This document shows, piece by piece, positions 35,415 to 40,999 of a stretch of DNA of 64,000 bases. The stretch's first letter is position 1, and the number at the start of each line of letters is the position of its first letter. The position numbers and the translations under genes are program-made. Source of the stretch: Frankia sp. AiPa1 (GTDB lineage Bacteria > Actinomycetota > Actinomycetes > Frankiales > Frankiaceae); assembly GCF_023243075.1 (NCBI RefSeq), contig NZ_JALKFZ020000140.1:62001-126000 (forward strand). The letters are read 5' to 3'. Under the pieces are notes generated by a model, which saw only the letters and a list, made by a program, of their open reading frames with translations, made no database searches and had not been told where the DNA came from.

Positions 35415-36323
35415 TCAGCCGGCGGCGGAAGGCGCCGCGGGCGCTGTTGCCGACGGACGGTCGGTGGCTGCCTCGGTCAACCCACGCCGCGTGGCACGGG
35501 CACGGACCGGGGCGACGGCAAGGCGTTCGGCAAGGGCGCCGAAACCGAACCCGATCGTCAGCCACATGATCAGCTGGCTGATGACGGAGTAGAACCGGAA
35601 TCGGAACAGCACGTCGGCCGGGAAGCCCGGGTAGACGATCGCGCCCTTCGCGTCCCGCAGCGGTTGCGGGGTCTCGGTGGCGAACGTGCCGTACTCGGCC
35701 TTGTTCGACGCGAGATGCCCCAACGGCGGCAGCAGCGCCATGGCCACCCCGACCAGCACGAGAAACACCACCGCGGCGAGCAGGCTCGCGTTCCACGCCC
35801 CGACCCGGCCGGCCAGCCAGCGCCCAGCGAACACGGCGAGCGTCAGCGACACCACCGACACCGCGACCATCGTCACGTACAGGGCACTGCGGTCCCCGAT
35901 CGTCTCCTCGTGGCCGATCGCCGGCGGGTTCGCCGGGTACTTGGCGAACGGCACCAGGTAAAGGCTCACGAACCCGGCCCCGGCCAGCAGCGCGGCGAGC
36001 ACCCGCGGGCGGATCCGCGGGTACCGCCGGGAAAGGATCAGGTAGACGACGACGAACAGCCCGCCGATGGCCAGCCCGAAAGCCGCCATGCCCACCCCGA
36101 CGCCGATGTTGCGCTGCACCGAGCGGCTGAACACCTCCGCCCCCTCATGCCCGTGCCCGAGACCGGCGGCATGACCGAGTGCGTCCTGAGCGGCGTCGCG
36201 CCCGCTCTCGTAGTCGATCGCGTCCTGGATGAACGGCTCGGCGAAGATGCGGGCGAACACGAACGCCAACAGCCCGCCGACCAGCCCCACACCAAGGCCG
36301 CGGTAAATGTGACGAAGTTCCAT
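35415..36323 (-). CDS. cbtA: CbtA cobalt transporter subunit
   Basis: The 302-residue membrane protein matches CbtA, a subunit of a cobalt uptake transporter whose genes are commonly under cobalamin-riboswitch control. Visible segments include the first helix RGLGVGLVGGLLAFVFARIFAEP, a His-rich loop GHAAGLGHGHEGAEVF that may bind the metal, and about six hydrophobic helices. Conserved LSRRYPRIRPR and YPGFPADVLFRFRFYSVISQ follow. The gene is 15 bp downstream of cbtB and shares its promoter and riboswitch. The Ala/Pro/Thr-rich C-terminus is disordered. Confidence 0.92.
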   Translation of the reverse strand: MELRHIYRGLGVGLVGGLLAFVFARIFAEPFIQDAIDYESGRDAAQDALGHAAGLGHGHEGAEVFSRSVQRNIGVGVGMAAFGLAIGGLFVVVYLILSRRYPRIRPRVLAALLAGAGFVSLYLVPFAKYPANPPAIGHEETIGDRSALYVTMVAVSVVSLTLAVFAGRWLAGRVGAWNASLLAAVVFLVLVGVAMALLPPLGHLASNKAEYGTFATETPQPLRDAKGAIVYPGFPADVLFRFRFYSVISQLIMWLTIGFGFGALAERLAVAPVRARATRRGLTEAATDRPSATAPAAPSAAG

Positions 36324-36338
36324 CGCGGCGGCCCCCGC

Positions 36339-36551
36339 TCAGTGGCAGGGGAAGCCGAGGAAGTGGCGCGCGTCATGCACGAACTCGTGGATGTGCGTGT
36401 CCGAGCCGAACAGCGACGTCGCGCCCTGGTCGACGCCGATGAAGTACAGCAGCGCCAGGGAGAGCAGCGCCGTCAGACCCAGCGCCAGGTGGCGGGCGGT
36501 CAGCGGGAGGGCGATCGCGCGCTGCCGTGACTCGGCGGCAGGTGTCGTCAT
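36339..36551 (-). CDS. cbtB: CbtB cobalt transporter subunit
   Basis: The 70-residue protein has one hydrophobic helix (ALGLTALLSLALLYFIGVD) and a C-terminal metal-binding tail, HEFVHDARHFLGFPCH, with four His and a Cys, matching CbtB. It pairs with CbtA for Co2+ import. The ATG at 36551 is preceded by AGGAGG. The cobalamin riboswitch lies immediately upstream. Confidence 0.93.
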   Translation of the reverse strand: MTTPAAESRQRAIALPLTARHLALGLTALLSLALLYFIGVDQGATSLFGSDTHIHEFVHDARHFLGFPCH

Positions 36552-36599
36552 GAAGGGAAAACCTCCTGGGGGATCGTGCGTCCCGAATGAACGGACTCA

Positions 36600-36715
36600 C
36601 CTGCGCTTGGGTCTGGCTCCCGGCCCCCACCACGCCTGGCGGGCGGACCGGTCACAGTGGCGCGACCGCGCCGGATTTCCACCGGCTTCCTTACACAGGC
36701 GTTCGCAGTATGCGG
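36600..36715 (-). promoter_or_regulatory. Cobalamin (AdoCbl-type) riboswitch
   Basis: On the minus strand the leader contains GGAAGCCGGTGGAAATCC, the GCGGTCGCGCCACTGTGA B12-box-like core and GAGCCAGACCC, in the order expected of the cobalamin riboswitch. It lies 50-165 bp before cbtB. When cobalamin is plentiful it should reduce cbtBA expression, so the cell would take up cobalt only when short of B12. The boundaries are approximate. Confidence 0.88.
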
Positions 36716-36984
36716 TCCGCCCACATCGTTGTCAACGCGCCGAACGGTACGAACAGCCCGCTCCCTCCCGTTACACCCGTTCCCGCCTGTCCGTCCGCTC
36801 CGACTGTCGAGCCGGTGGCGCGCGTTCCGGCCTGTAACGCTTATTCCCCCACGTCACGCCTGTTTCGCCCGTAACACCCGTTTTCGCGCGTTCCGCCTGG
36901 CCCTGCCCGCCCTGCCGTCACCCGGCTCCCACCGCGAGAGTGCCCGGAGCCGGGACGCGTCACCTTCCGCGTTGGGTGGAAGAG

Positions 36985-37060
36985 CAAGATCCCGCTATCT
37001 AGGTCGCCGTGGGGGGCAAATCGGACACGAATCCCCCCATGGCGACCTCTTTGGATCTTG
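36985..37060. repeat. Large two-tier palindrome
   Basis: An inner pair of 16-bp arms (37001-37016 and 37033-37048), complementary at 15 positions with one G/T, surrounds a 16-base loop. An outer pair CAAGATCC (36985-36992) and GGATCTTG (37053-37060) frames it with asymmetric internal loops (8 and 4 bases). It lies between the riboswitch leader and the Lrp-type remnant. Also nearby are two 19-bp direct repeats (36769 and 36869, 16 of 19 identical) with core CCGT(T/A)ACACCCGTT. Confidence 0.7.
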
Positions 37061-37113
37061 GCGCGGTCCGGGGCTGGGAATTCCGTCGCGGAACGTGACT
37101 CTGATCGTCTGGA

Positions 37114-37580
37114 GTGAAGGCAGGCGAGCTGGGCCGCCGTCGGCCATTCCGGCTCGTAGTCGCCCGGGAGCCATGCGTCGGGCTCCTGCGGACGGGCGGG
37201 ACACGGGGACATGTCAGCCTGGGCGCGTCCGTCCGGCTCTCCGAGCCCAGCGTGCGGCGCAGGCTCGCCCGCCTGCGTGCCAGTGGCGCGGTGTACTTCG
37301 ATCTGCAGATCGACCTCGACAGGCTCGGCTATCACAGGTCGCGCTGCTCTGGTTGACGGTGACGCCGGCCGCGCTGGACGCCACCGGAGCGGCCCTCGCC
37401 CGGCATCCCGAGGTCGCGTTCGTCGCGGCCACCACCGGCGGCAGCAACCTGGTCGCCGCGGTGATCTGCCGCGACACCGAGGATCTTTACGGGTATCTCA
37501 CGCGACGGATCGCGTCCGTCCCGGGAATCACCGGGATCGAGACCGCCACCGTGATGCGCCAGTTCAAGCAGCGCCAATAG
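37114..37580 (+). pseudogene. Lrp/AsnC-type regulator remnant with frameshift
   Basis: The first part encodes VRLSEPSVRRRLARLRASGAVYFDLQIDLDRLGY, the end of an Lrp-type helix-turn-helix and linker. After about 37335 the similarity continues in a different frame: SQVALLWLTVTPAALDATGAALARHPEVAFVAATTGGSNLVAAVICRD and GITGIETATVMRQFKQRQ, the ligand-binding domain. One base gained or lost near 37333-37345 would restore the frame. Actinobacterial homologues usually have two such modules; only the second is seen, so this is a truncated, frameshifted relic. A sequencing error remains possible. No ribosome site and no complete start were found. Confidence 0.75.
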
Positions 37581-37598: not shown

Positions 37599-38246
37599 TC
37601 AGGGAGTTGGCACCCGGTGGGCGAGGCGGCGGCGGACCCTGCGCCGGATGTCCGTGGGCAGAACATCGGCGACGGCGCCAAGCTCGGGCAGGCGCTCTGG
37701 CTCGGTTGTCAGTGCACGGAACACGGATCCGATGGTGATGTCGTGATTCGGTCGGTGAACGATCGTGATCGCATCACCGGCGGTGACCTCACCCGGCGTC
37801 CGGACCCGCAGGTAAGCGCCGGGCTCGGCCCGCTGGGTGAAACGGGCGATGAGATCGGGGACATCCCAGAACCCGGCGAATACCCGGCAGGGCACCCGCG
37901 GCGCCGACACCTCGAACACGGCCGAGCCGATCGCCCACAGCTCGCCGATCCGGGCACCGGTGACGTCGAGTTCCGCCGTCGTGAGATTCTCGCCGAAATT
38001 ACCCGGGATGATGCGCCGCCCAAGCGTCTCCATCCACCAGGCGTAATCCTCGTGCGCGAAGGCATAACCGGCCCGGTCGACACCGCCGTGGAACCGCCGG
38101 TCGACGACGGTGTCGCCACCGAGGCCCTCCGGCCCCGCCCGCACCGGGCCGCTGACCGGACGTTTGTCGATGCCGCTGCGGCCCATGGCGCCCGTCCACG
38201 CGCCGTCCCGGACGACGGCGAGGTTGACCGTCAGTAGACGTCCCAC
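37599..38246 (-). CDS. MOSC domain protein (YiiM-like)
   Basis: The 215-residue protein is a MOSC-domain protein. The domain is found in molybdenum-cofactor sulfurases and in YiiM-like reductases. Segments GDTVVDRRFHGGVDRAGYAFAHEDYAWW, PGNFGENLTT, IGELWAIGSAVFEVSAPRVPCRVFAGFW (with the conserved Cys) and YLRVRTPGEVTAGD are typical. The GTG at 38246 is preferred because GGTGGA is five bases upstream and the family begins with this strand; a GTG at 38321 would add 25 residues. It converges on the Lrp relic. Function is likely handling of a Mo-bound or N-hydroxylated substrate. Confidence 0.92.
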   Translation of the reverse strand: MGRLLTVNLAVVRDGAWTGAMGRSGIDKRPVSGPVRAGPEGLGGDTVVDRRFHGGVDRAGYAFAHEDYAWWMETLGRRIIPGNFGENLTTAELDVTGARIGELWAIGSAVFEVSAPRVPCRVFAGFWDVPDLIARFTQRAEPGAYLRVRTPGEVTAGDAITIVHRPNHDITIGSVFRALTTEPERLPELGAVADVLPTDIRRRVRRRLAHRVPTP

Positions 38247-38776
38247 AGGTTCCACCGGCCAGCCCACCCGTCCCAGAACCCGGAGCGGATCACGGTCTCC
38301 CACCTCCGGCGAACGTACCACCGGCCGCCCGGAGTGGTGGTCGTCGCGGTCGTCGCGGCCGCCGCTGCCGCTGCCGGTTGCGCCCTGGCCCAGGCGGTCT
38401 CGCGCTGACGCCGAGCGACGGGCAGCCCTTCGTTGTGGGCACGGCGGGAGCGTGACGGGTGCGCGGCCGGGGGGGATCGTCCTGTGGACACCAAGTGGAG
38501 CGTTTACCGGGGGAAAGGACGGTCCGATGGGCGGACGTGCTGGTCAGGCGCCGGTGGGAAGCGGCTTAGGGTGGGAGCCTCGGGAGGGAGCCCGTGTGCC
38601 TGTCCACGTTCCGTGGGGTCGGGTGAGGTCGGTGTGAGGGGTGGCGTCGATAGTCCGCCGCGGGCCGTCGTGGGGCGGTGTGGATATGGGAATCGCGGCG
38701 GTTGGATCCCGCCGGCGGGGAGTATCCTGCTGGTGCGGAGTCGCTACGGGGGACGCGGCCTGCTGGGGAGTTGGCC
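38247..38776. other. Intergenic region upstream of the DUF4407 gene
   Basis: No gene was recognised with confidence in 530 bp. A plus-strand stretch at about 38336-38408 could encode a short Val/Ala-rich hydrophobic peptide ending at TGA, but there is no ribosome site or homologue. TTGGAT (38702-38707) and TATCCT (38723-38728) are 15 bp apart and could be the promoter of the DUF4407 gene. Confidence 0.4.
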
Positions 38777-40999
38777 ATGCGGGGGATCGGCTCAGGAGTG
38801 CGCAGAGTGTCAGGTGCGGTCGGCCGCTTCGTGCGCGCGCCGTTCCATACCATGGGCCAGTTCATGCTGTGGCTGTCCACGGCGAACCTGAGGGTGCTCG
38901 AACGGTTTCCGTCCGACCGGCCGAAATACGTCGGTCTCGGCAGCGCGGTGTTCATCACCTCGTCGATGGCGGCGATCTCCAGCGGTTTTGCCCTGCGGAT
39001 GGGCCTGAACCTGCCGATCCCGGCGTGCGCCGTTCTCGGGCTGCTCTGGGGCCTCGCCATCATGGGATTCGACCGGTGGCTACTGGCGACCGCGGGCCGT
39101 TCCAACATCTGGATGCTGTTGCCGCGTGCGGCGCTGGCTTTCCTCATCGGCCTCGTGGTCTCCACGCCGTTCGTGCTGCGCATCTTCCAGCCGGAGATCA
39201 TGCAGCAGGTCGCGCTGATCCAGGCCTCGGCGGCCACCAGCCAGCAGGAGAGCTGGAACGACCCGAGGAATCCGATCGTCAGCCAGATCAACCGGCTCAG
39301 CGGCGACATCGGTAGGCAGACGGTGCTCGTCAACACCAAGGGTGGCGCGACCGTCGAGAACGACCCGGCGGTGAGCTCGCTGGTGGCGAAGCTGAGCCCG
39401 GACGTCGACCCGATGAAGACCTACAACCGGCTCCAGCAGCAGATCAACTGCGAGGAGTCCGGCAGCACCAACTGCGGTGACGGCGTGGGCTCGGGCCGGC
39501 CGGGAGACGGTTTCCGAACCCAGCAGCTCAAGCAGCAGCGGGACGACTACTTCCAGAACTTCGTTCAGCCGCTGCAGACCCAGCTGGCCGCGGCCCGGAC
39601 AACCGCGGGGAACGCTCTTCCCGCCCGGCAGCAAAAGGCCGTGCAGGACGCCAAGGACCAGATCGCCGCTGACCAGAAGGAGCTTGCTCCGCTGCTCGTG
39701 AAGCGGGACCGACTGCGGCGCTCGTTCGACACGTCGAACACGGAGAACACCGGCCTGCTGATCCGTATGCAGGCCCTCGGCGACCTGACCAAGCACAACG
39801 CGACGATGCGCACCACGCACTACACGCTGCTGGCATTCATCACCGCGATCGACTGTCTGCCGATTCTGTTCAAACTGTTCATGCTGCTTGGGCGTAAGAA
39901 CAAATACGAGGAGGGCCTGGAGGCGGAGGAACGCGAGCACCTGGCGATCTCCCGGCAGTTCAGCCGCCGGCTGCGGGCCGAGCAGACGATCTACCAGACG
40001 GACACGCTGCGCGAGGCGCAGGCCGCCCGGGACGAGCGCGACGAGGCCATCGAGGAGCTGGCCCGCCGCACCGTGCGGGATCAGGTCGAGATCGCCGAGC
40101 GCACCCTCGACCGCTGGAAGCGCGAGGAGTTCGACCGGGTCGACCAGGACCCGAACTACCGCACCACCCGGCAGGTCCCCGCCCCGAACGTCCTGCCCGC
40201 CTACCAGCGTTCGGCCAGCGTCGACGAGGTGCTCGGCGCCCCGCCGCAGCGCTCGTGGCCGCCGACTGGACGCAGTCGGGACGAGCTGCGCCGGGCCCGT
40301 CGGGGCCCGGAGCGTCCCACCAGCGGTCGCGATGTCGACGCCGGCCGGAGCACCAGCGGCCGGGGCGCCGACACGGCGAGCTGGGACCTGGTGAACGGCC
40401 GACGCACCGCCTCCGGACATGATGTCGTCCCGGACCGGGACCGGGACCGGGATGGCCGGGGCCGGTCGGGCGACGCAGGCCAGGGCACGACTGTCTCGGA
40501 TCGTCGGGCGCAGGACGCGGAACCCTCGCGCCACCAGGATTCCCCAGGCCGGTACGAACGGTCGAGTGCCTCGAGTGTGCTGGGCTTCTCGGATCCAACC
40601 TGGCAGGACGCGGACGAGGCCACTGTGATCCCCTCCCGGTCGCCCTCCGACCCGCTGTTCGAACAGCCGGTCGGGCGCGGGCCAGCGGTGGGCGAGCCTA
40701 CCGACGGGTCCCGGGCCTATGCGGGCGGTGTGGCGGCGAACGGTCACGCCGAGCCCGCCGCCGCGGTCAACGGCGCCACGGCGCACGGTGGCGACGCACA
40801 CGGCGGCGGGACGCAGGACGGCCCCTCGTACGGCGGCTCCGCGTATGGCGGCCGCGCGAACAGCAGCCACGCGAGCGGCAGCGCGGTGTACGGCGCCGCC
40901 GAGGACGACACGGTGCACGGCGCCGCCAGGGACGGCGCGGTGGACGAGACCGTGCTCATACCGCCGCCCGGTGAGGAACCCGGCAGCGACCTGTGGTGA
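38777..40999 (+). CDS. DUF4407 membrane protein with long disordered tail
   Basis: The 740-residue protein has a DUF4407-like core: three early membrane helices (about 52-75, 80-97, 115-135) with the motif GFDRWLL between the second and third, a coiled-coil periplasmic/extracellular region (about 140-355; QTQLAAARTTAGNALPARQQKAVQDAKDQ), and a fourth helix (about 363-385). A cytosolic segment with charged coiled coil (ERDEAIEELARRTVRDQVEIAERTL) follows. The last about 270 residues are Ser/Gly/Arg-rich and end in the acidic motif DETVLIPPPGEEPGSDLW. The ATG at 38777 follows GGGGAG. It converges on the GTPase/tubulin operon 19 bp away and is likely part of that system. The biochemical function of the family is not established to my knowledge. 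Confidence 0.85.
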   Translation: MRGIGSGVRRVSGAVGRFVRAPFHTMGQFMLWLSTANLRVLERFPSDRPKYVGLGSAVFITSSMAAISSGFALRMGLNLPIPACAVLGLLWGLAIMGFDRWLLATAGRSNIWMLLPRAALAFLIGLVVSTPFVLRIFQPEIMQQVALIQASAATSQQESWNDPRNPIVSQINRLSGDIGRQTVLVNTKGGATVENDPAVSSLVAKLSPDVDPMKTYNRLQQQINCEESGSTNCGDGVGSGRPGDGFRTQQLKQQRDDYFQNFVQPLQTQLAAARTTAGNALPARQQKAVQDAKDQIAADQKELAPLLVKRDRLRRSFDTSNTENTGLLIRMQALGDLTKHNATMRTTHYTLLAFITAIDCLPILFKLFMLLGRKNKYEEGLEAEEREHLAISRQFSRRLRAEQTIYQTDTLREAQAARDERDEAIEELARRTVRDQVEIAERTLDRWKREEFDRVDQDPNYRTTRQVPAPNVLPAYQRSASVDEVLGAPPQRSWPPTGRSRDELRRARRGPERPTSGRDVDAGRSTSGRGADTASWDLVNGRRTASGHDVVPDRDRDRDGRGRSGDAGQGTTVSDRRAQDAEPSRHQDSPGRYERSSASSVLGFSDPTWQDADEATVIPSRSPSDPLFEQPVGRGPAVGEPTDGSRAYAGGVAANGHAEPAAAVNGATAHGGDAHGGGTQDGPSYGGSAYGGRANSSHASGSAVYGAAEDDTVHGAARDGAVDETVLIPPPGEEPGSDLW

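What the first reader, a model, noticed from the sequence alone, without database searches (positions are those of the whole stretch)
36985..37060. Two-tier palindrome between riboswitch and Lrp-type relic
A 16-bp stem with one G/T and a 16-base loop, framed by a second 8-bp stem, is larger than most operators or terminators in the window. It could be a folded RNA, a MITE-like relic (the nearby gene is broken), or a transcription-termination site of the relic's old operon.
Basis: seen in the sequence. Interest (0 to 1): 0.5.

Follow-up and report, generated by a model that had tools for sequence, protein, structure and literature searches.

The report
Repeated Frankia hairpins sharing one loop
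The palindrome is one of roughly a hundred copies of a DNA hairpin scattered between genes of this Frankia bacterium, and relatives in other species keep the same loop while swapping the whole stem for another matching pair, so something probably recognises the loop.

Summary
The palindrome is real: 16-bp inner stem with one G/T, 16-nt loop, 8-bp outer stem. It is not single-copy. The own genome, a Frankia, holds 98 copies by my count, a lower bound, none inside a predicted ORF. All 13 Frankia genomes held have members. Their 17-bp stems differ largely between subfamilies yet stay complementary, while a 17-nt loop (AYAAATCGGRCRCSGAA) persists. The same loop on another stem occurs in 6 of 41 genomes of an unnamed genus in another family of the class. 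In the one-contig genome G005 the unit is a bare ~52-bp hairpin: 26 of 49 copies lie between convergent genes and 2 between divergent ones, a median 48 nt from a facing stop codon. I read it as a REP-like dispersed palindrome tagged by its loop rather than by a GTAG/CGTC end. Partner protein and effect are unknown. Rfam has no match, and the listings and passages I saw describe no such family.

The parts
37001..37016 (+). 5' arm of the inner stem
   Evidence: 37002-37047 is the R3 model match on the + strand
37017..37032 (+). apical loop CAAATCGGACACGAAT, carrying the genus-wide loop motif
37033..37048 (+). 3' arm of the inner stem
36985..36992 (+). 5' arm of the outer stem (CAAGATCC); positions 36988-36990 unvaried in 37 of 37 gapless own-genome copies
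37053..37060 (+). 3' arm of the outer stem (GGATCTTG)
36959..36971 (+). left arm of a third, outermost inverted repeat (GTCACCTTCCGCG)
37087..37099 (+). right arm of the third inverted repeat (CGCGGAACGTGAC)
36918..37114 (.). approximate extent of the copied unit in this genome, inferred by offset from the most similar pair of copies (C44:73458 / C44:76501)
   Evidence: boundaries approximate, indels ignored
36539..36736 (-). neighbour: cobalamin riboswitch of cbtBA (not part of the element)
36339..36551 (-). neighbour: cbtB (cobalt transporter subunit)
37114..37580 (+). neighbour: frame-broken Lrp/AsnC relic; begins about where the element ends
37599..38321 (-). neighbour: MOSC-domain gene

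Best explanation
It is one copy of a REP-like family of dispersed intergenic palindromes in Frankia. SHOWN: it is high-copy, intergenic and concentrated at gene 3' ends; there are many subfamilies whose stems differ but stay complementary; the 17-nt apical loop is kept, also in a second actinobacterial genus. INFERRED: the loop on top of a long stem is the recognition signal ('loop-tagged' rather than GTAG/CGTC-tagged). The hairpin, probably as folded single-stranded DNA or a cruciform, is recognised and copied in trans by an unidentified enzyme, possibly of the HUH/Y1 single-strand transposase kind, some of whose known members contact hairpin loops. Copies settle and survive mainly just after stop codons, where they do little harm and may secondarily block read-through or 3' decay. 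The window copy is an old, probably immobile member sitting 5' of a dead Lrp gene; no role for it in cbtBA or relic expression is indicated.
For: Copies: 40 of 123 first-look candidates scored, 40 strong matches at E about 2e-20 or better; 98 in the own genome after removing overlaps; lower bound because 150 candidates were scored. Extragenic: 0 of 98 inside a predicted ORF although 75% of the fetched own-genome sequence is predicted coding. Genus-wide: 13 of 13 Frankia genomes. Stem covariation: 15 stem-diverse Frankia hairpins, 13 of 17 pairs changed on both sides, 94.5% of cells paired against 73.2% in shuffles and 37-56% when slid; 24 hairpins of two genera, 15 of 17 pairs, covariation score 0.905 against 0.250 in shuffles. 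Places picked by the loop and its closing CCC alone: 10 of 10 genomes had the motif, 0 matches of the reversed control pattern; of 29 distinct places read, 22 had a stem score of 7 or more and 19 of 9 or more, against 20% and 5% of 4350 random places in the same loci. Placement: G005 26 convergent against 2 divergent (copy-free spacers of 60 bp or more, window included: 7 against 28, Fisher p 4e-9), own genome 30 against 14 (18 against 46, p 6e-5), median 48 nt to a facing stop in G005. Unit: no clear flank conservation around 29 same-stem copies in G005. Copying: C44 pair, 75 of 76 core bases identical, shared unit ~195 bp then abrupt divergence, opposite orientation 3 kb apart. Presence/absence: the convergent spacer at C122:28097 is 353 bp with the hairpin in the own genome and 3 bp without it in G006. 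Loop contacts by group-3 TnpAREP, IS608 and ISDra2 transposases: passages of PMC8266576.
Against: No partner protein: among 80 proteins flanking or lying between G005 copies, Pfam gave 147 families and no transposase among the 25 best-represented that were shown; the other 122 were not listed and no genome was searched for Y1 transposases. The same paper reports that the E. [quoted passage not shown] No target-site duplication: at the filled/empty pair the difference (353 against 3 bp) is larger than the ~195-bp unit, so a precise insertion is not shown and a deletion is possible. The C44 pair lies on one contig, so local duplication or conversion is possible, and only 3 pairs of own-genome copies reach 95% core identity. 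At the window locus G001 and G006 lack both the repeat and most of the Lrp gene, so insertion and deletion cannot be told apart. Within the own genome the variable stem positions do not covary. No expression data. The DNA-level reading rests on weak asymmetries (p 0.04 and 0.09, copies not independent).
Confidence: 0.55

Rival explanations
1. RNA-level 3'-end element: the hairpin is transcribed at the end of mRNAs and a protein binding the conserved loop promotes termination or protects the 3' end from exonucleases.
For: Placement a median 48 nt after stop codons and mostly between convergent genes in G005; stable fold on either strand; stems maintained by compensatory changes.
Against: No T-run directly after the stem: T 5-15% at positions 1-8 (35% at position 9 and 29% at 11). 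Loop orientation is not clearly fixed: 42 sense against 27 antisense tandem copies, p 0.09. G.T mismatches are not favoured over A.C in the loop strand (81 against 111). 2 of 49 and 14 of 98 copies, the window's among the latter, lie between divergent genes. No match in 20 of 22 genomes of other Frankiaceae genera, the other two weak.
Confidence: 0.25
2. A chromosomal DNA site: the palindrome extrudes as a cruciform or is bound as duplex between convergent genes, where positive supercoils collect, by a gyrase or nucleoid protein, as proposed for E. coli REP/BIME (recalled).
For: Strong excess between convergent genes; both orientations used; mismatches not strongly favouring a wobble strand.
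Against: A duplex-binding protein would be expected to need conserved arm sequence, yet the arms change largely between subfamilies while the loop is kept. Copy number is uneven (12 matches in G010 to 69 in G003).
Confidence: 0.12
3. Ordinary MITE: internally deleted remnant of an insertion sequence with terminal inverted repeats, unrelated to hairpin recognition.
For: ~195-bp shared unit and outer inverted arms in the own genome.
Against: In G005 the unit shrinks to the bare hairpin with nothing clearly conserved outside; no target duplication seen; a MITE does not explain swapped but complementary stems under one loop.
Confidence: 0.08

Closest known systems
GTAG- and CGTC-tagged REPs (repetitive extragenic palindromes; Di Nocera et al. 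2013, PMC3733652; abstract, section 15 and passages read)
   Same: High copy, extragenic, palindromic; stems differ between families and species around a conserved tag; mostly between convergent or unidirectional genes, close to 3' ends.
   Different: The tag here is a 17-nt apical loop; stems are about 17 bp (that paper's Table 1: 5-13 bp, loops 2-20 bp); no GTAG/CGTC end shared in the subfamily tested; no RAYT gene seen nearby. The words Frankia, Micromonospora, Salinispora and Actinobacteria do not occur in that paper's main text.
IS200/IS605 and TnpAREP single-strand DNA hairpin recognition (PMC8266576, passages read)
   Same: Enzymes read loop bases or stem irregularities of a folded hairpin; several tolerate changed stem sequence.
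   Different: No such enzyme has been tied to this family; the loops tested there were 3-4 bases, and the E. coli REP loop was not read by sequence.
ERIC/IRU-type long imperfect palindromes (recalled, no call)
   Same: The own-genome unit is a nested palindrome of comparable size, intergenic.
   Different: Shared sequence reduces to one hairpin with a conserved loop in other Frankia; no sequence comparison with ERIC was made.

Membership tests
REP (GTAG/CGTC-tagged) | high-copy extragenic palindrome | tested here: met
   98 copies, 0 of 98 inside predicted ORFs; G005 49 copies in the fetched regions, 1 overlapping the end of an ORF
REP (GTAG/CGTC-tagged) | GTAG or CGTC tetranucleotide at the foot of the stem | tested here: not met
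   29 same-stem copies in G005: 0.1-0.9 bit per position in the 40 nt on either side, no shared tag visible; other subfamilies not tested this way, and some (e.g. L086) do have GTAG after the stem
REP (GTAG/CGTC-tagged) | 20-40 bp size | tested here: not met
   hairpin of about 52 nt in G005; ~76-nt two-tier core in the window
REP (GTAG/CGTC-tagged) | RAYT (TnpAREP) gene flanked by copies | tested here: inconclusive
   none among the 25 shown of 147 Pfam families in 80 G005 neighbour proteins; no genome-wide search for Y1 transposases
REP (GTAG/CGTC-tagged) | excess between convergent and unidirectional genes, near 3' ends | tested here: met
MITE | terminal inverted repeats plus target-site duplication | tested here: inconclusive
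   outer inverted arms present in the own-genome family, not seen in G005; no duplication seen at the one filled/empty pair nor noticed
Intrinsic terminator | G+C-rich hairpin followed by a T-run on the transcript strand | tested here: not met
   T 5-15% at positions 1-8 after 102 hairpins (35% at position 9); A 4-24% at positions 1-8 before them
Any Rfam family | covariance-model match at the gathering score | tested here: not met
   gathering; window and 12 loci; the only match is the neighbouring cobalamin aptamer; E up to 5: only a chance-level ar7 match, 12.3 bits against a 60-bit cut-off
IS200/IS605-type single-strand mobile element | hairpin recognised and cut by a Y1 HUH transposase | not testable with these tools
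   biochemical; no candidate enzyme identified

The most novel reading that the evidence does not exclude
A previously undescribed class of dispersed bacterial palindromes read by their loop: a 17-nt apical sequence conserved across at least two actinobacterial families, carried on freely changing but complementary stems, and served by an unknown loop-recognising protein that spreads the hairpin (or uses it) in Frankia and in a second genus.
Probability: 0.45. Interest if true: 0.75.

Novelty: new variant of a known kind. Interest (0 to 1): 0.6.

Why it matters
Tagged REPs are known by a conserved tetranucleotide beside the hairpin. A family that instead conserves the loop and lets the stem change is a natural selection experiment on hairpin recognition: the loop sequence, the tolerated stem length and the spread of stems are given by the genomes, and a binding or cutting assay could identify the partner. 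It also supplies a marker family for strain typing in Frankia and a candidate for what marks gene 3' ends in these GC-rich genomes.

Tried and rejected
Single-copy operator or terminator: rejected by the copy number. Riboswitch expression platform: the hairpin is 249 nt from the aptamer, on its 5' side. Plasmid or phage origin: the window element gave no match in plasmids or phages and the loop pattern none in viral contigs; for the g65-type hairpin, plasmid and phage hits covered at most 42% of the query at E 0.04-0.6, and the one read (Nonomuraea) shows no such hairpin. Naming genus g65 by a plasmid comparison failed.

A plain DNA search of 40 genomes (own and relatives) saw the element only in 3 Frankia genomes, because the stems differ; this is why structure models were used. 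R1, built on own-genome copies, matched 11 of 13 Frankia genomes.

RNA-strand test by G.T against A.C: no excess in the loop strand; pooled p 0.04 points, if anywhere, to the opposite strand; copies are not independent, the window copy is counted in both calls, and the 119 rows include the L237 palindrome without the loop.

Orthologous conservation as proof of constraint: first taken as strong (my notes), then weakened. For L145/L177 and L138/L178 the core identities (0.72, 0.74) exceed the flanks (0.58-0.64; shuffled 0.66, 0.64), and for L187/L195 0.71 against 0.67 (shuffled 0.65), but two unrelated copies of two genomes could look as similar, so independent insertion into one spacer is not excluded. 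L072/L194 is a true ortholog (core and left flank 99%), too close to test constraint. L045/L175, L124/L186 and L163/L171 were dropped as not orthologous or not alignable. Other pairs (L076/L189, L077/L081, L078/L079, L089/L159) were not examined further.

Pattern AAATCGGACRCNGAA across the phylum: 2 of 396 genomes, one place each, no stem seen by eye; the pattern cannot match the window's own loop variant, so it says little about that variant. G201's R2 match is a perfect palindrome without the loop. Alignments A2 and A3 were misregistered in some rows, chiefly those with 18-nt loops, and were not used for models. Rows dropped: 3 of 40 copies with indels; 7 of 49 G005 hairpins not 51 nt long in the clusters.

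Bias to state: the Frankia rows of A4 and A5 were chosen from candidates already required to pair in part or from model or pattern matches, and the 8 g65 rows are model matches (8 of 13), so the percentage paired is inflated; the places were picked by the loop and CCC alone, and 19 of 29 read had a stem score of 9 or more (22 of 29 at 7 or more, a level that 20% of random places also reach).

Full report
WHAT WAS CHECKED. Inner arms 37001-37016 / 37033-37048 pair over 16 positions with one G/T around a 16-nt loop; outer arms 36985-36992 / 37053-37060 pair perfectly over 8. Both strands fold far better than shuffles: z -6.24 and -5.09, 0 of 200 shuffles as good in each case. A third inverted repeat, 36959-36971 / 37087-37099, surrounds both.

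IT IS A REPEAT FAMILY. A DNA search of the own genome (G000, 6.98 Mb, 198 contigs) scored 40 of 123 first-look candidates, all 40 strong matches. A covariance model of these (R1) and nhmmer over the fetched loci gave 98 non-overlapping copies in G000. Two of the 98 are weak (C118:377 at 21 bits, C13:10489 at 31 bits), and the number is a lower bound because only 150 candidates were scored. None of the 98 lies within a predicted ORF, although 75% of the fetched own-genome sequence is predicted coding. ORFs came from my own codon-usage caller, so starts are uncertain. The window copy is the only R3 match in the 64-kb window; another copy (C154:61355) lies about 0.6 kb before its start.

HOST. 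The own genome is therefore a Frankia; the collection holds 13 genomes of the genus, own included. G005's single contig of 7,497,934 bases is, from memory, the length of Frankia alni ACN14a; this was not checked by a call.

WITHIN THE OWN GENOME. 37 gapless copies show conserved loop and arms against variable bulges. The variable stem positions 37007/37008 and 37041/37042 do not covary. The most similar pair, C44:73458 and C44:76501, has 75 of 76 core bases identical, lies 3 kb apart in opposite orientation, and shares about 195 bp that end abruptly. This points to copying of a discrete unit, though a local duplication is not excluded; only 3 pairs reach 95% core identity. Transferred by offset, the unit would span about 36918-37114 in the window and end about where the broken Lrp frame begins. 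The median nearest-neighbour core identity of 0.91 suggests that most copies are older.

BETWEEN SPECIES. Matches in other Frankia genomes revealed different stems under the same loop, for example CTGCTTATCCGGAGGG/CCCTCCGGATAAGCAG in G005 and TGTTCCTTCTGGGGG/CCCCCAGAAGGAACA in G002, against AGGTCGCCGTGGGGGG/CCCCCCATGGCGACCT in the window. A pattern made of the loop and its closing CCC alone found places in 10 of 10 other Frankia genomes, with no match of the reversed control. Of 29 distinct places read (30 loci returned), 22 carry a stem with score 7 or more and 19 with 9 or more; 20% and 5% of 4350 random places in these loci do. On 15 stem-diverse hairpins 13 of 17 pairs have changes on both sides and 94.5% of cells pair, against 73.2% in shuffles. 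A model from these (R2) matches 13 of 13 Frankia genomes, with 4 to 69 matches each at E up to 0.001, both strands of one palindrome sometimes counted, and weakly 2 of 22 genomes of other genera of the family.

BEYOND FRANKIA. Of 197 class genomes, R2 found besides Frankia only G215 and G201 at E up to 1e-4. G201 is a perfect palindrome without the loop. G215, of a different family, carries TCATGAAGTTGGCGGCG[ACAAATCGGACGCCGAA]CGCCGCCAACTTCATGA. In its genus (g65) 6 of 41 genomes matched R2 with 13 places; reading all 13 confirmed the loop, some with one to about three changes. A model including 8 of these (R3: 15 of 17 pairs with double changes) matched 13 Frankia genomes and G215 among 393 class genomes at E up to 1e-5. 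These large searches used stricter filters and scored 30 or 15 candidates per genome, so absence elsewhere is not proof. The genus g65 is unnamed here; Micromonospora is my guess from genome size and position, not a result.

LOOP. Over 97 rows of 51 nt the loop reads A-Y-A/G-A-A-T-C-G-G-A/G-C-R-C-S-G/A-A-A/G, with C7, G8, G9 and C11 at 96-99%. The own-genome variant has one base fewer before GAA and extra bases after it.

PLACEMENT. In G005, 49 copies were found in the 40 fetched regions: 26 convergent, 2 divergent, 12 tandem with the loop in the gene's sense, 8 tandem antisense, 1 overlapping the end of an ORF. The median distance to a facing 3' end is 48 nt (72 ends), to a facing 5' end 166.5 nt (24 ends). 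In the same regions plus the window, spacers of 60 bp or more without copies are 7 convergent, 28 divergent and 39 tandem; Fisher p 4e-9 for convergent against divergent. The 60-bp floor leaves out short convergent spacers, so the contrast is somewhat flattered. In the own genome the figures are 30 convergent, 14 divergent, 49 tandem and 5 at contig edges, against 18, 46 and 103 copy-free spacers, p 6e-5; the median distance to a facing 3' end is 143 nt, to a 5' end 287 nt. The window copy is one of the 14 divergent ones. The dominant G005 subfamily, 29 of 42 full-length hairpins, has no clear conserved sequence outside the stem, and no two of the 42 are identical.

RNA OR DNA. No T-run directly follows 102 hairpins (T 5-15% at positions 1-8, 35% at position 9). 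G.T stem mismatches do not exceed A.C in the loop strand: 61 against 75 over 119 rows and 20 against 36 in the inner stem of 37 own-genome copies. Tandem copies are 42 sense to 27 antisense (p 0.09). A transcript-level role with a loop-binding protein would predict the opposite of the second and a stronger bias in the third. None of these tests is decisive alone.

THE WINDOW LOCUS. In the relatives G001 and G006 the riboswitch-cbt region and the MOSC gene are neighbours with only about 60 and 233 bp between the matched ends. G006 retains about 70 bp matching the end of the Lrp gene; both lack the repeat. Whether the repeat was inserted in the own lineage or lost with the Lrp gene cannot be told. 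At another site (C122:28097) the convergent spacer is 353 bp with the hairpin in the own genome and 3 bp in G006: a presence/absence difference, larger than the unit itself.

LITERATURE. Nine searches of the open-access library showed, in the listings I saw, no paper describing such a family in Frankia. Passages on repeats were read in PMC4447401, PMC2770080, PMC3188489 and PMC5768760: they concern palindrome counting, IS elements and CRISPRs, none describing this. PMC4447401 has a supplementary table of palindrome counts in four Frankia genomes, which I did not see. PMC6006769 (HuH endonucleases) does not mention Frankia, Micromonospora or Actinobacteria in its main text. The best comparison is the REP survey PMC3733652 (abstract, section 15, passages), with the recognition study PMC8266576 (passages). 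Most subscription papers are not in the library.

VERDICT. Established: a high-copy, genus-wide, stem-variable, loop-conserved hairpin family with a strong 3'-end and convergent-gene preference, shared with at least one other genus. Likely: REP-like dispersal with loop recognition. Open: the protein, mobility today, and any effect on transcripts.

Noticed in passing
window 35415-36736 (-): Cobalamin riboswitch ahead of cbtB-cbtA, an expected B12-controlled cobalt transporter arrangement. A 44-nt piece of the aptamer (36648-36691) is 86-91% identical to places elsewhere in 11 other Frankia genomes, probably other B12 riboswitches.
   Followed up: partly
window 37114-37580: The Lrp/AsnC gene is frame-broken here, reduced to about 70 bp in G006 and not matched in G001: the same gene is decaying next to cbtBA in several lineages.
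   Followed up: partly
L123 (G000:C44:70900-79100): Two nearly identical copies (75 of 76 core bases) in opposite orientation 3 kb apart, sharing about 195 bp with abrupt ends.
   Followed up: partly
L168:386-436 (G000:C118): The own genome also carries a member of another subfamily (GGGTCCTTCTGGGGGG stem), so several subfamilies coexist.
   Followed up: no
G001 and G006 copies, e.g. L072 and L194: There the outer CAAGATCC/GGATCTTG stem is in many copies replaced on the 3' side by GTGCACCCTGCAC, which can form a small second hairpin.
   Followed up: no
L191, L192 (G006:C208, C168): Contigs of the draft genome end inside the repeat, so the assembly breaks at it in places and copy numbers in drafts may be too low.
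   Followed up: no
L236:1501-1551 and 1662-1712: In G215 two hairpins of the family lie about 110 bp apart; the start of this locus matches gndA genes on plasmids.
   Followed up: no
window 38678-40999 (+): DUF4407 protein gene beyond the MOSC gene.
   Followed up: no
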